From: Halogeometricum sp. S3BR5-2
Lineage (GTDB): Archaea > Halobacteriota > Halobacteria > Halobacteriales > Haloferacaceae
DNA length: 41,235 nucleotides
Assembly: GCF_031624635.1 (NCBI RefSeq)
Contig: NZ_JAMQOQ010000012.1
Coordinates: 1 to 41,235 of the forward strand
Direction of reading: 5' to 3'
Of this stretch, positions 2,614 through 6,523 are shown in pieces (position 1 is the first letter of the stretch; each line of letters starts with the position of its first letter). Both the position numbers and the translations under genes were made by a program. The notes under the pieces were generated by a model. The model worked only from the letters and a program-made list of their open reading frames with translations. It searched no databases and was not told the DNA's origin.

Positions 2614-2795
2614 TACTGAATTTCAGTATAACCTAGTCGTCGGCCCTCGCTTCGAAAAAGTGGAGGTAGCTGCCATCCGCCTTCCGAGAATTGCCCATCG
2701 AGCCGCGGTTCCGATCAATATCTGGAATAGAGTGAGTGCAGACATTCATATACCGAGCCGGGACCAAACTGAGTGACTCAATCCTCTCAGAAATC

Positions 2796-4013
2796 ATGGG
2801 TAAGAAGCTGTACTCAGACGATGAACTCCTCAATCGGCTCCAGAAGTTCGCTGAGGAACTCGGTCGTCCCCCGTCGCAGAGTGAGATGGACGATTCGGGG
2901 CCCCATGCTTCGAAGACGTACGGGAATCGGTTCGGGTCGTGGAAAAACGCACTTGAGGCTGCCGGACTTCAGACCGGAACGAACGATCCAAACGGACGAC
3001 CACCGACGCCCGAAGAGGACCTTCTTACTGATCTCAAATCAGTTGCCGACATCGTAGGGGGAACTCCGTCAGAGCGCGAATACGGTACTCATGGAGAGTA
3101 TTCGGTGAAGACATACTGCAAGCGATTTGGAGGGTGGAATTCAGCACTACAGGCGGCCGGTTTTGAACCGAATGTCAAAATGAACCTCTCCGAGAAGGCT
3201 CTCATTACTGCCTTACAGGGGTTCGCCGAGAAACTGGGTCGACCGCCCACGACAGATGAGATGGACCGGAGTGGCCCCTACACCTCGAATTCGTACAAGC
3301 GAGCGTTTGGAACCTGGAATCGTGCTCTTCGGCAGGCCGGGTTGGAAGTTCACTCCGTGTGGAATGTGAGCGGGGACGATCTGATATCCGAACTCAACAG
3401 TCTCGCCGAAGAGCTAGGTCATGTCCCTCGGAAGGGTGAGATGCAGAGCCAAGGGAAATGGAGTGCGGCAGTCTATCAGGAGCGATTCGGTTCGTGGAAT
3501 GAAGCTCTACGAGTTGCCGGTTTCGAGCCGAATAAGCGGTGGCGAATTCCACGGGAGGAGTTATTAGCCGAATTGCGGGCTGTTGCGAATGAGCTGGGCC
3601 ACCCACCGGCAACGACGGAAATGAACGAACACGGGAAGTTCACCATCGATCCGTATCAGCGTGAATTCGGAACATGGCGAACGGCCCTTCAAGCGGCCGA
3701 CCCGGACTATCTAGAAAACTACCGTCAGTCAGATACCGAGACAGTTCCGTTTGGCTCGAACTGGCCACAGATTCGTGAGGAAATCATCGCCCGTGATAAC
3801 GAGTCCTGTCTACGCTGCGGTATGGGCCGCGAAGCTCACCGCGAGAATTTCGGACGTGATCTTCCGGTTCACCACCGGATTCCTCGACGCCGGTTCTACG
3901 ACGACCCAGACCAGTCGGTCGACGATGCAGATGTCCCGAGTAACCTGTTGACTCTCTGTATCCCGTGCCATCGCCGCCTCGAGCGGTTGCCAGTCCAACC
4001 AGTGGTTGACTAA
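2796..4013 (+). CDS. HNH endonuclease with five homing-endonuclease-associated helical repeats
   Basis: A 405-residue protein. About residues 1-315 consist of five repeats of roughly 60 residues, each running L..L...A.ELG.PP...EM...G......Y...FGSW..AL..AGFE, the pattern of the homing endonuclease associated repeat, a small DNA-binding helical unit. The C-terminal 90 residues form an HNH nuclease: CLRCG, then VHHRIPRRRF, then NLLTLCIPCHRRLE, giving the paired zinc cysteines and the catalytic His. The start at 2796 (MGKKLYSDDEL) is chosen because it opens the first repeat; an upstream in-frame ATG would add 20 unlike residues. The repeats probably recognise an extended DNA site. It could be a free-standing homing endonuclease or a restriction-like nuclease; no intron, intein or methyltransferase is next to it. 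Confidence 0.87.
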   Translation: MGKKLYSDDELLNRLQKFAEELGRPPSQSEMDDSGPHASKTYGNRFGSWKNALEAAGLQTGTNDPNGRPPTPEEDLLTDLKSVADIVGGTPSEREYGTHGEYSVKTYCKRFGGWNSALQAAGFEPNVKMNLSEKALITALQGFAEKLGRPPTTDEMDRSGPYTSNSYKRAFGTWNRALRQAGLEVHSVWNVSGDDLISELNSLAEELGHVPRKGEMQSQGKWSAAVYQERFGSWNEALRVAGFEPNKRWRIPREELLAELRAVANELGHPPATTEMNEHGKFTIDPYQREFGTWRTALQAADPDYLENYRQSDTETVPFGSNWPQIREEIIARDNESCLRCGMGREAHRENFGRDLPVHHRIPRRRFYDDPDQSVDDADVPSNLLTLCIPCHRRLERLPVQPVVD

Positions 4014-4150: not shown

Positions 4151-4492
4151 TTAGGCTATGAGAAGCCACGCAGCTCCGAACGCAAGCAGAGAGACGGTCA
4201 GATTGCCGAGCGCATTTAAAAATGCAGCTCTCTGTTCGCCCTGCTCCCAGAGGCTAACGGTCTGAAAACTAAACGACGAGAATGTCGTGAACGCCCCACA
4301 GAATCCGACACTCACCAAGAGGAGGATGTCGGAATCACTCACCCCGAAGATGACTGACCCGAGGATGAAGCTCCCGAGTGCGTTGACCACGAGAGTGGCC
4401 CACGGGAACGACGTGTTGTCGATCAGCTGTCCGACCATATAACGCAGTACTGCACCGACTGCTCCGCCAATACTGATGAGCAGGACCTCCAT
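4151..4492 (-). CDS. crcB: Fluoride ion exporter CrcB/Fluc, second subunit
   Basis: 113 residues with four hydrophobic segments. The family signature is present: GGAVGAVLRYMVG near the N-terminus, then PWATLVVNALGSFILG (the conserved Asn in the pore) and FCGAFTTFSSFSFQ (the Phe-box and TTFSS motif). Fluc channels are dual-topology membrane dimers that let cytoplasmic fluoride escape. Its ATG overlaps the TAA stop of the upstream crcB by one base (TAATG), so translation is probably coupled. Two different adjacent subunits suggest a heterodimeric channel, as known for paired crcB genes. Confidence 0.95.
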   Translation of the reverse strand: MEVLLISIGGAVGAVLRYMVGQLIDNTSFPWATLVVNALGSFILGSVIFGVSDSDILLLVSVGFCGAFTTFSSFSFQTVSLWEQGEQRAAFLNALGNLTVSLLAFGAAWLLIA

Positions 4493-4905
4493 TAGTCATC
4501 ACCCGGCGTCGGTGGCTGAATAGCGGTTTTAGACGTTTTGGCTACGATTTTTCGACTGACAAGGACTCCGCCAAATCCGGATGCGTAACTGGCAATAATG
4601 TATGGAACTGCGAGTTCCGGTGCGGTCAACGCAATGTCGGCCACGAACGTGCTGTAGGTGGTAAACGAAGCAAAGAAGCCCGTTCCGAAGACATAACGCA
4701 GCCGTTTCGTGAGGATCTCATCTGCTCGAGCATCGAAGAGGAGTAACCCAAGTCCGAAGCTCCCGAGAGTGTTGACGAGGAGTGTAACCAGGAGTGCGTC
4801 ACCCGCTGCTGCCCCGACAGCGTATCGAAGGTTCGCACCGACGATTCCACCAAGTGTAATCAATACGATCGCTTCCCCGTGCCGAATGAGTTGTCTCCGT
4901 AGCAT
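4492..4905 (-). CDS. crcB: Fluoride ion exporter CrcB/Fluc, first subunit
   Basis: 137 residues with four membrane segments. The signature runs ITLGGIVGANLRYAVG, then LLVTLLVNTLGSFGLG with the pore Asn, then GFFASFTTYSTFVAD, equivalent to the TTFSS motif with a Tyr/Ser substitution. It is the promoter-proximal gene of a two-gene operon with the crcB that starts at 4492. A fluoride riboswitch ends 14 bases before its ATG, which directly supports fluoride as the substrate and ligand-induced expression. The C-terminal tail (KTAIQPPTPGDD) is hydrophilic. Confidence 0.95.
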   Translation of the reverse strand: MLRRQLIRHGEAIVLITLGGIVGANLRYAVGAAAGDALLVTLLVNTLGSFGLGLLLFDARADEILTKRLRYVFGTGFFASFTTYSTFVADIALTAPELAVPYIIASYASGFGGVLVSRKIVAKTSKTAIQPPTPGDD

Positions 4906-4933
4906 CTGATGAGCCGAAAGTAGGAGTCATCAG
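4906..4933 (-). promoter_or_regulatory. Candidate expression-platform hairpin of the fluoride riboswitch
   Basis: On the mRNA, CUGAUGA (positions 4933-4927), which is part of the aptamer 3' strand, is a perfect 7-base complement of UCAUCAG (4912-4906), which directly abuts the AUG at 4905. The loop is 14 bases. The two folds are mutually exclusive: fluoride-bound aptamer keeps the first strand, freeing the start codon region. This predicts a translational ON switch. The pairing is seen in the sequence; the mechanism is inferred. Confidence 0.6.
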
Positions 4934-4973
4934 CCGTATCGGCGGTTGGGGAAGGCGGACTCCATCGCCCGTG
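4920..4973 (-). ncRNA. Fluoride riboswitch (crcB motif) aptamer
   Basis: On the minus strand the sequence reads GGGCGATGGAGTCCGCC, then an AACCGCC segment, then GGCTGATGACTCCTAC. This matches the crcB-motif consensus. The pairings are present: GGCG with CGCC closing the first hairpin; GGAGTC in its loop with GACTCC near the 3' end (the pseudoknot); and GCC-GATAC-GGC as the second hairpin. It sits 14 bases upstream of tandem crcB genes, the expected target. The motif is known from bacteria and archaea. Confidence 0.92.
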
Positions 4974-5000
4974 TTTCACTTCTATCTCCGGCGATCGGAC

Positions 5001-5008
5001 AAATAAAC
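5001..5008 (-). promoter_or_regulatory. TATA-like box for the riboswitch-crcB transcript
   Basis: The minus strand reads GTTTATTT about 28-35 bases before the riboswitch, which places the predicted transcript start near 4976, just ahead of the first aptamer base. This gives the leader needed for a riboswitch. Placement by spacing only. Confidence 0.5.
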
Positions 5009-5527: not shown

Positions 5528-5596
5528 GAACGCCCCTGAGGGGTGCGGCGCGGTCTGAGCAGACGCAGTTGCCGTGAACTTGATTCGGTGAACACA

Positions 5597-6523
5597 ATGG
5601 CTACGACCAGTGATTCGTGGGTCTCCTTCGACCAGACCGACACGCGATCCGACGAGATGAACAGTACGATCGAACAGTGGATCGACGACCTCGTCGCCGG
5701 CGTCGACGACGCGCAGGCCAGCGCGGAGTTCCAGGAGTGGCTTGACGTCCAGAGTCGCTTCCACGACTACTCGTATCGGAACACGCTCCTCATCAAGCGG
5801 CAGTGTCCCGAGGCCAGCCGGGTGGCGGGCTACCGGACGTGGCAGGAGGAGTTCGACCGCCACGTCACAGAGGGCGAGTCAGCCATCTGGATCTGGGCGC
5901 CGATCATCACCAAGCAGTGCCCGGAATGCGAGAACTCGCCGAGCTACCACGAGGAAAGCGACTGTGAGTACGATGAGACGCCGCCCGAGGAGTGGTCCGA
6001 GGGCCTGGTCGGGTTCAAGCCTGCGCCGGTGTTCGACGTCTCCCAGACCGAAGGCGAGCCGCTTCCCGACTTCGACACGGAAGCGACCGGGGACGCCGGC
6101 GACCTCGTCGAACAGTTGACTGTCGCCGCTGACGACCTCGGCGTGACGGTGCGGATCGTTCCAGCCGAGGAGTGGACCCACGGCGAGGCGAAGGGCATCT
6201 GCGAGCAGCTGAGCCTCGTCGACGTCCAGCCGCTCGTCGAGGTGCGTGATCGGGAGAACGAGGCCGACCTCGCGCGGACGCTAATTCACGAGTACGCCCA
6301 CGCTCTGCTCCACTTCGACATCGACGACGACACCGAGCGAGCGAAACGCGAAGTCGAGGCCGAGGCCGTCGCGTACGTCGTCGGGCGGTACTGTGGACTG
6401 GATACTAGCGGGTCGGCGTTCTACCTCGCTGCGTGGGAGTCGGACGATTCCGAGGTCGTTCGCGACCGACTCGGGCGGATCAGTCGGACGGCAGAGGAAC
6501 TCATCGACGTTCTCGAAGGCTGA
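5597..6523 (+). CDS. ArdC-like N-terminal domain fused to an ImmA/IrrE-type metallopeptidase
   Basis: A 308-residue protein. Residues about 30-110 resemble the ArdC N-terminal ssDNA-binding domain: FHDYSYRNTLLIKRQCPEA, then RVAGYRTWQ and GESAIWIWAPI. An insert with paired cysteines (KQCPEC, SDCEYD) may be a small zinc site. The C-terminal half carries HEYAHALLHFD, a zincin HExxH motif, with a downstream Glu cluster (EVEAEAVAYVVG) that fits the third ligand, as in ImmA/IrrE peptidases. ArdC proteins on plasmids protect incoming DNA from restriction; the peptidase partner may cleave a repressor. The ATG at 5597 is preferred to an upstream start that would add an Arg-rich stretch unlike haloarchaeal proteins. 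Domain order is seen; the role is inferred. Confidence 0.85.
   Translation: MATTSDSWVSFDQTDTRSDEMNSTIEQWIDDLVAGVDDAQASAEFQEWLDVQSRFHDYSYRNTLLIKRQCPEASRVAGYRTWQEEFDRHVTEGESAIWIWAPIITKQCPECENSPSYHEESDCEYDETPPEEWSEGLVGFKPAPVFDVSQTEGEPLPDFDTEATGDAGDLVEQLTVAADDLGVTVRIVPAEEWTHGEAKGICEQLSLVDVQPLVEVRDRENEADLARTLIHEYAHALLHFDIDDDTERAKREVEAEAVAYVVGRYCGLDTSGSAFYLAAWESDDSEVVRDRLGRISRTAEELIDVLEG

What the first reader, a model, noticed from the sequence alone, without database searches (positions are those of the whole stretch)
4903..5008. Archaeal fluoride riboswitch with a visible start-codon switch hairpin
The aptamer before the crcB pair matches the crcB motif closely, including the pseudoknot pair GGAGTC/GACTCC. 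The 3' aptamer strand CUGAUGA is also a perfect complement of UCAUCAG, which abuts the first AUG. That gives a simple mutually exclusive switch and predicts translational activation by fluoride in an organism where most mRNAs are leaderless. A TATA-like box at 5001-5008 sets a transcript start just before the aptamer. The aptamer class is known; this expression platform is my inference.
Basis: partly seen in the sequence, partly recalled or inferred. Interest (0 to 1): 0.65.

Follow-up and report, generated by a model that had tools for sequence, protein, structure and literature searches.

The report
Haloarchaeal fluoride riboswitch masking start codon
A salt-loving archaeon carries a genuine fluoride-sensing RNA in front of its fluoride-export genes, and comparison with about 80 relatives suggests that without fluoride part of this RNA folds back onto the bases next to the start codon and blocks protein synthesis, a way of switching that needs no ribosome-binding sequence.

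Summary
The aptamer is real. Rfam RF01734 (Fluoride) matches window 4978-4914 (-) full length at 57.5 bits (cut-off 34), directly before two overlapping CrcB genes. CUGAUGA (4933-4927) and UCAUCAG (4912-4906, abutting AUG 4905) are perfect complements, and that hairpin is in the unconstrained RNA fold.

The exact heptamer is found only in the window's own subfamily: identical on a Halospeciosus flavus plasmid, kept with one G-U pair in Halosimplex salinum and one other genome. The principle is much wider. Across 80 unique haloarchaeal leaders, the segment just before crcB's AUG is complementary to the aptamer's 3' strand GGCUGAYGR, usually in a register shifted by two bases. CAGCC abuts AUG in 33/80, against 0/181 generic starts and 0/31 aptamer-less crcB genes. 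AUG lies 9-25 nt after the aptamer in 90/92 loci. SD-like motifs are rare (5/80), but present in 16/19 other archaeal aptamer leaders.

Best explanation: a translational ON switch that occludes the AUG-proximal region rather than an SD. Aptamer, gene association and complementarity are shown. Fluoride dependence, transcript start and translational control are inferred. Two-sided covariation is scarce because the aptamer side hardly varies.

The parts
5001..5007 (-). TATA-like box TTTATTT, predicted promoter of the crcB transcript (start expected near 4978-4985)
   Evidence: Sequence; A+T peak 21-25 nt before the aptamer across 92 loci. Promoter function and start site inferred.
4914..4978 (-). 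Fluoride riboswitch aptamer (RF01734)
   Evidence: cmscan 57.5 bits, gathering 34, E 1.6e-13, full length
4958..4963 (-). 5' half of the aptamer pseudoknot, GGAGUC
   Evidence: Pairs with 4928-4923; intact in 82/82 unique haloarchaeal loci
4923..4928 (-). 3' half of the aptamer pseudoknot, GACUCC
4927..4933 (-). CUGAUGA: shared strand, end of the second aptamer hairpin plus junction plus first two pseudoknot bases; also 5' arm of the switch hairpin
   Evidence: Perfect complement of 4912-4906; in the MFE fold
4906..4912 (-). UCAUCAG: AUG-abutting anti-aptamer segment, 3' arm of the switch hairpin
   Evidence: Identical in L111, one G-U-preserving change in L006/L118; hairpin z -2.5
4492..4905 (-). 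crcB1, 137 aa, fluoride exporter subunit; AUG at 4905
   Evidence: PF02537 E 3.9e-16
4151..4492 (-). crcB2, 113 aa, second CrcB subunit, overlapping crcB1 by one base
   Evidence: PF02537 E 2.8e-26

Best explanation
It is a fluoride riboswitch acting as a translational ON switch for a crcB1-crcB2 fluoride-exporter operon. Transcription starts just before the aptamer. Without fluoride, the 3' strand of the aptamer (CUGAUGA here; GGCUGAYGR in most haloarchaea) pairs with the segment that ends at the base before the AUG. This breaks the second aptamer hairpin and is incompatible with the full pseudoknot, and it makes the start region of a leader without a Shine-Dalgarno sequence inaccessible. With fluoride, the pseudoknotted aptamer keeps that strand, the AUG-proximal segment is freed, and CrcB is made. 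Shown here: the aptamer, the genes, the complementarity, its link to aptamer presence, and the narrow spacing. Inferred: fluoride binding, transcript start, the translational level of control, and its direction.
For: Rfam match and intact pseudoknot. Hairpin in the MFE fold. CAGCC abuts AUG in 33/80 aptamer crcB leaders against 0/181 generic starts (p 4e-20) and 0/31 aptamer-less crcB starts (p 3e-6). Perfect WC helices of at least 7 bp in 15/80 leaders against 1/181 generic contexts. The common register pairs 66% of cells against 26-44% slid. The second-hairpin 3' strand is the best of seven aptamer segments in 44/79 leaders. AUG 9-25 nt from the aptamer in 90/92. The predicted opening cost of the AUG region falls when the aptamer is set aside, more than with shuffled linkers (p 8e-7). 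Leaders fit their own aptamer class better (p 4e-4). Compensated pair L019/L049. Window register kept in L111, L006/L118 and lost in L008, whose crcB is decayed. No U-run over 4 before the AUG; SD rare here, common in other archaea. AUG-masking switches work in Haloferax (PMC8241225).
Against: About 39% of leaders have no WC helix longer than 4 bp (31/80). Covariation does not exceed shuffles of partners. Loci are related, so p-values overstate independence. The whole window leader is not unusually stable (z -0.19). Modelled accessibility changes for the window itself are small (4.7 against 2.4 kcal/mol), and the pseudoknot is not in the model. No expression, binding or transcript data.
Confidence: 0.7

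Rival explanations
1. The aptamer is functional but controls transcription: fluoride prevents premature termination in the leader, as in Bacillus cereus, and the AUG-proximal complementarity is incidental.
For: Terminators overlapping the aptamer are the commonest bacterial platform (PMC2864571, PMC13273304).
Against: No run of more than 4 T between aptamer and AUG in 80 leaders, median 1-2; the complementarity is aptamer-linked and abuts the AUG.
Confidence: 0.1
2. The aptamer is functional and translational, but what matters is general occlusion or opening of the short linker by the folded aptamer, or mRNA stability, not the specific helix with the AUG-abutting segment. CAGCC or UCAUCAG would be kept for another reason, such as initiation efficiency on leadered mRNAs.
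For: Many leaders lack a long helix (31/80 with at most 4 WC pairs); covariation is weak.
Against: CAGCC is absent from 181 generic starts and 31 aptamer-less crcB starts; several different registers reach complementarity; swap test p 4e-4.
Confidence: 0.15
3. The main crcB transcript starts downstream of the aptamer and is leaderless, so the aptamer is a relic or serves only a minor transcript.
For: Most haloarchaeal mRNAs are leaderless (PMC3986360, PMC8241225).
Against: A+T peak placed for a start at the aptamer in 92 loci; pseudoknot pairing intact in 82/82 loci, so the aptamer is under selection.
Confidence: 0.05

Closest known systems
Fluoride riboswitch (crcB motif, Rfam RF01734)
   Same: Aptamer sequence, two hairpins, pseudoknot, position before crcB; expression platform shares strand with the aptamer, as in the bacterial terminator-type members (PMC13273304, PMC2864571)
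   Different: Platform pairs the aptamer's 3' strand with a segment abutting the AUG instead of forming a terminator
Thermococcus kodakarensis fluoride riboswitch (Speed et al. 2018, cited in PMC8241225 and PMC11077080; paper not held)
   Same: Archaeal, fluoride-inducible, described as translational
   Different: Thermococcales mRNAs often carry a ribosome-binding sequence (about 50%, PMC4247193); here no SD. Its platform sequence was not compared here
SD-masking translational fluoride riboswitches (e.g. Pseudomonas syringae, Burkholderia pseudomallei controls in PMC13273304; methanogen-type leaders L205, L209, L215, L217, L224 here)
   Same: Aptamer followed closely by the start codon, no terminator
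   Different: Those archaeal leaders carry an SD (16/19); haloarchaeal ones mostly do not (5/80)
Synthetic theophylline riboswitches in Haloferax volcanii (PMC8241225)
   Same: Show that masking the AUG region by ligand-controlled RNA folding works in a haloarchaeon
   Different: Engineered, carry an SD, different ligand and aptamer

Membership tests
Fluoride riboswitch aptamer RF01734 | Covariance model match above gathering score | tested here: met
   57.5 bits against 34
Fluoride riboswitch aptamer RF01734 | Pseudoknot between first-hairpin loop and 3' strand | tested here: met
   GGAGUC/GACUCC; 82/82 haloarchaeal loci paired, several pair types
Fluoride riboswitch aptamer RF01734 | Located in the 5' leader of a fluoride-resistance gene | tested here: met
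   crcB pair PF02537
Fluoride riboswitch aptamer RF01734 | Binds fluoride | not testable with these tools
   Needs in-line probing or SHAPE
Terminator-type (transcriptional) fluoride riboswitch | Terminator hairpin plus U-run overlapping the aptamer 3' end | tested here: not met
   No U-run above 4 nt in 80 haloarchaeal leaders; none in the window
SD-masking translational riboswitch | SD sequence before the start codon | tested here: not met
   None in the window leader; 5/80 haloarchaeal leaders against 16/19 other archaeal leaders
Translational ON switch by occlusion of the AUG-proximal segment | Aptamer strand complementary to a segment abutting the AUG, linked to aptamer presence | tested here: met
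Translational ON switch by occlusion of the AUG-proximal segment | Two-sided covariation of the switch helix | tested here: inconclusive
   Not above shuffles; one compensated pair L019/L049
Translational ON switch by occlusion of the AUG-proximal segment | Fluoride raises translation without changing mRNA level | not testable with these tools
   Needs reporter and RNA measurements

The most novel reading that the evidence does not exclude
Haloarchaea as a group carry an SD-independent fluoride riboswitch platform in which the aptamer's own 3' strand pairs with a short segment abutting the AUG, reached in different registers in different lineages. It would be the first natural riboswitch mechanism described for haloarchaea and would show that their non-SD initiation on leadered mRNAs is controlled by openness of the bases next to the start codon.
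Probability: 0.55. Interest if true: 0.65.

Novelty: new variant of a known kind. Interest (0 to 1): 0.52.

Why it matters
Natural riboswitches tested in archaea are very few: PMC8241225 counts one, in Thermococcus. Haloarchaea initiate translation on leadered mRNAs largely without an SD, by a mechanism still poorly understood (PMC3986360). A conserved natural switch that seems to work by closing only the bases next to the AUG gives a small, testable handle on that mechanism, and a candidate fluoride-inducible expression tool for halophiles.

Tried and rejected
Exact UCAUCAG as the general haloarchaeal platform: rejected, that register is rare. Terminator mechanism: no U-runs. SD masking: no SD in most leaders; the upstream aptamers L033/L034, before a small membrane ORF, may be exceptions with GGAGGUCA. 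CAGCC as a generic haloarchaeal start context: rejected (0/181). CAGCC as a crcB start feature independent of the aptamer: rejected (0/31). Pairing of the AUG-proximal segment with other aptamer segments: the second hairpin's 3' strand is the best partner in 44/79, the first hairpin's 5' strand is second. Two-sided covariation as the main evidence: not obtainable, because the aptamer side is nearly constant. Speed et al. 2018 is not held, so the Thermococcus platform was not compared.

Full report
Observation. Rfam's Fluoride model matches 4978-4914 over its whole length at 57.5 bits, far above its cut-off of 34. The aptamer precedes two overlapping CrcB genes. The pseudoknot GGAGUC/GACUCC is intact here and pairs in all 82 unique haloarchaeal loci, with several pair types at positions 3 and 5, so these are true aptamers. 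CUGAUGA 4933-4927 and UCAUCAG 4912-4906 form a 7-bp hairpin whose last base is the one before the AUG. It is in the minimum-energy fold of the leader, and the isolated hairpin beats 196 of 200 shuffles, although the whole leader is not unusually stable (z -0.19). A single such helix is only modestly improbable: 2.5-5% of shuffled linkers do as well.

Relatives. RF01734 matches 67 of 391 sampled genomes of the class, including a second, separate copy in the window's own genome; family-level searches added loci. Ninety-two loci with a crcB start were analysed. In 90 the AUG lies 9-25 nt after the pseudoknot strand. The nearest relatives of the window locus lie in other families: L111/L143 on a Halospeciosus flavus plasmid with the same UCAUCAG-AUG, and L118/L144 (Halosimplex salinum) and L006 with UCGUCAG-AUG, which still pairs through one G-U. 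L008 (by length and position the same record as Haloterrigena alkaliphila plasmid NZ_CP084319.1) has lost both the pairing and most of crcB: only about 20 codons are recognisable.

The common platform. In most haloarchaea the AUG-proximal segment is CAGCC, UCAGCC or longer (CCGUCAGCC in L066), complementary to GGCUG(AYG) of the aptamer. This register pairs in 66% of cells over 73 leaders against 26-44% when slid; the window's register is a rarer one, two bases over. CAGCC abuts the AUG in 33 of 80 leaders but in none of 181 generic start contexts and in none of 31 aptamer-less crcB starts (the one apparent exception, L157, does carry the aptamer 3' strand and was missed by the pattern). Duplex energies exceed generic contexts (p 4e-12 and 1.5e-5), and leaders fit their own aptamer class better than the other (p 4e-4). 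Among seven aptamer segments compared, this 3' strand is the best partner in 44 of 79 leaders. Other lineages reach the same end differently: L005/L007 pair AUGACUC with GAGUCAU, taking in the AU of the start codon; L019 pairs GAUGAC with GUCAUC and its congener L049 has GACGAC/GUCGUC, a compensated change.

Limits. The aptamer side hardly varies, so two-sided covariation is scarce and does not exceed shuffles. Sequences are related, so the p-values are not independent tests. About 39% of leaders have no helix beyond 4 WC pairs, so the platform is not universal or not always of this form. Fluoride binding, the transcript start and the level of control are not shown.

Mechanism. No U-run longer than 4 occurs between aptamer and AUG, and SD motifs are rare (5/80) while 16 of 19 readable aptamer leaders from other archaea of the phylum carry one. 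The predicted cost of opening the AUG region falls when the aptamer is set aside, more so than with shuffled linkers (p 8e-7). An A+T peak 21-25 nt before the aptamer fits a transcript starting at its 5' end, and the window has TTTATTT at 5007-5001. This favours a translational ON switch in an SD-less leader.

Known and new. The aptamer class, crcB association, strand sharing with the expression platform, and a translational archaeal member in Thermococcus are known (PMC2864571, PMC13273304, PMC11077080, PMC8241225). AUG masking works synthetically in Haloferax (PMC8241225). I found no paper describing the haloarchaeal platform in the library searched; absence there is not proof of novelty. 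I file it as a new variant of a known kind.

Noticed in passing
L033 and L034 (G297:C2 46753-46822; G359:C36 89647-89716): Two aptamers about 415 bp apart: the second before crcB, the first before a small membrane ORF of about 70 aa whose leader has GGAGGUCACC before the start; UGACUCC of the aptamer is complementary to it with one bulge, so this copy may use SD masking.
   Followed up: partly
L112 (G450:C162 44861-44927): Aptamer followed by a perfect 13-bp hairpin AUGACUCCUGUGG/CCACAGGAGUCAU with an AUG in the loop; no crcB and no recognisable gene directly downstream.
   Followed up: partly
L151-L153, L156, L160, L169, L171 (family f4 crcB loci) against RF01734: Family f4 aptamers have UGACGGUCCC instead of UGAUGACUCC and a long, variable second hairpin; many score below the Rfam cut-off or are missed, so RF01734 undercounts this group (8 of 125 genomes over the cut-off, 43 at E 0.001).
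   Followed up: partly
L008 (G255:C2 278601-278665): Near-copy of the window aptamer on a plasmid whose crcB has decayed and whose AUG-abutting pairing is lost: an orphaned riboswitch.
   Followed up: partly
window 2736-4013 (+) and 5543-6523 (+): The crcB locus is flanked by a protein with five homing-endonuclease-associated HNH repeats and one with ArdC N-terminal and M78 peptidase-like domains; with near-identical crcB loci in other families, this suggests a mobile setting.
   Followed up: no
Methanogen-type genomes of the phylum, e.g. G753:C16, G813:C3: Up to eight fluoride aptamers per genome, several clustered within 10-15 kb.
   Followed up: no
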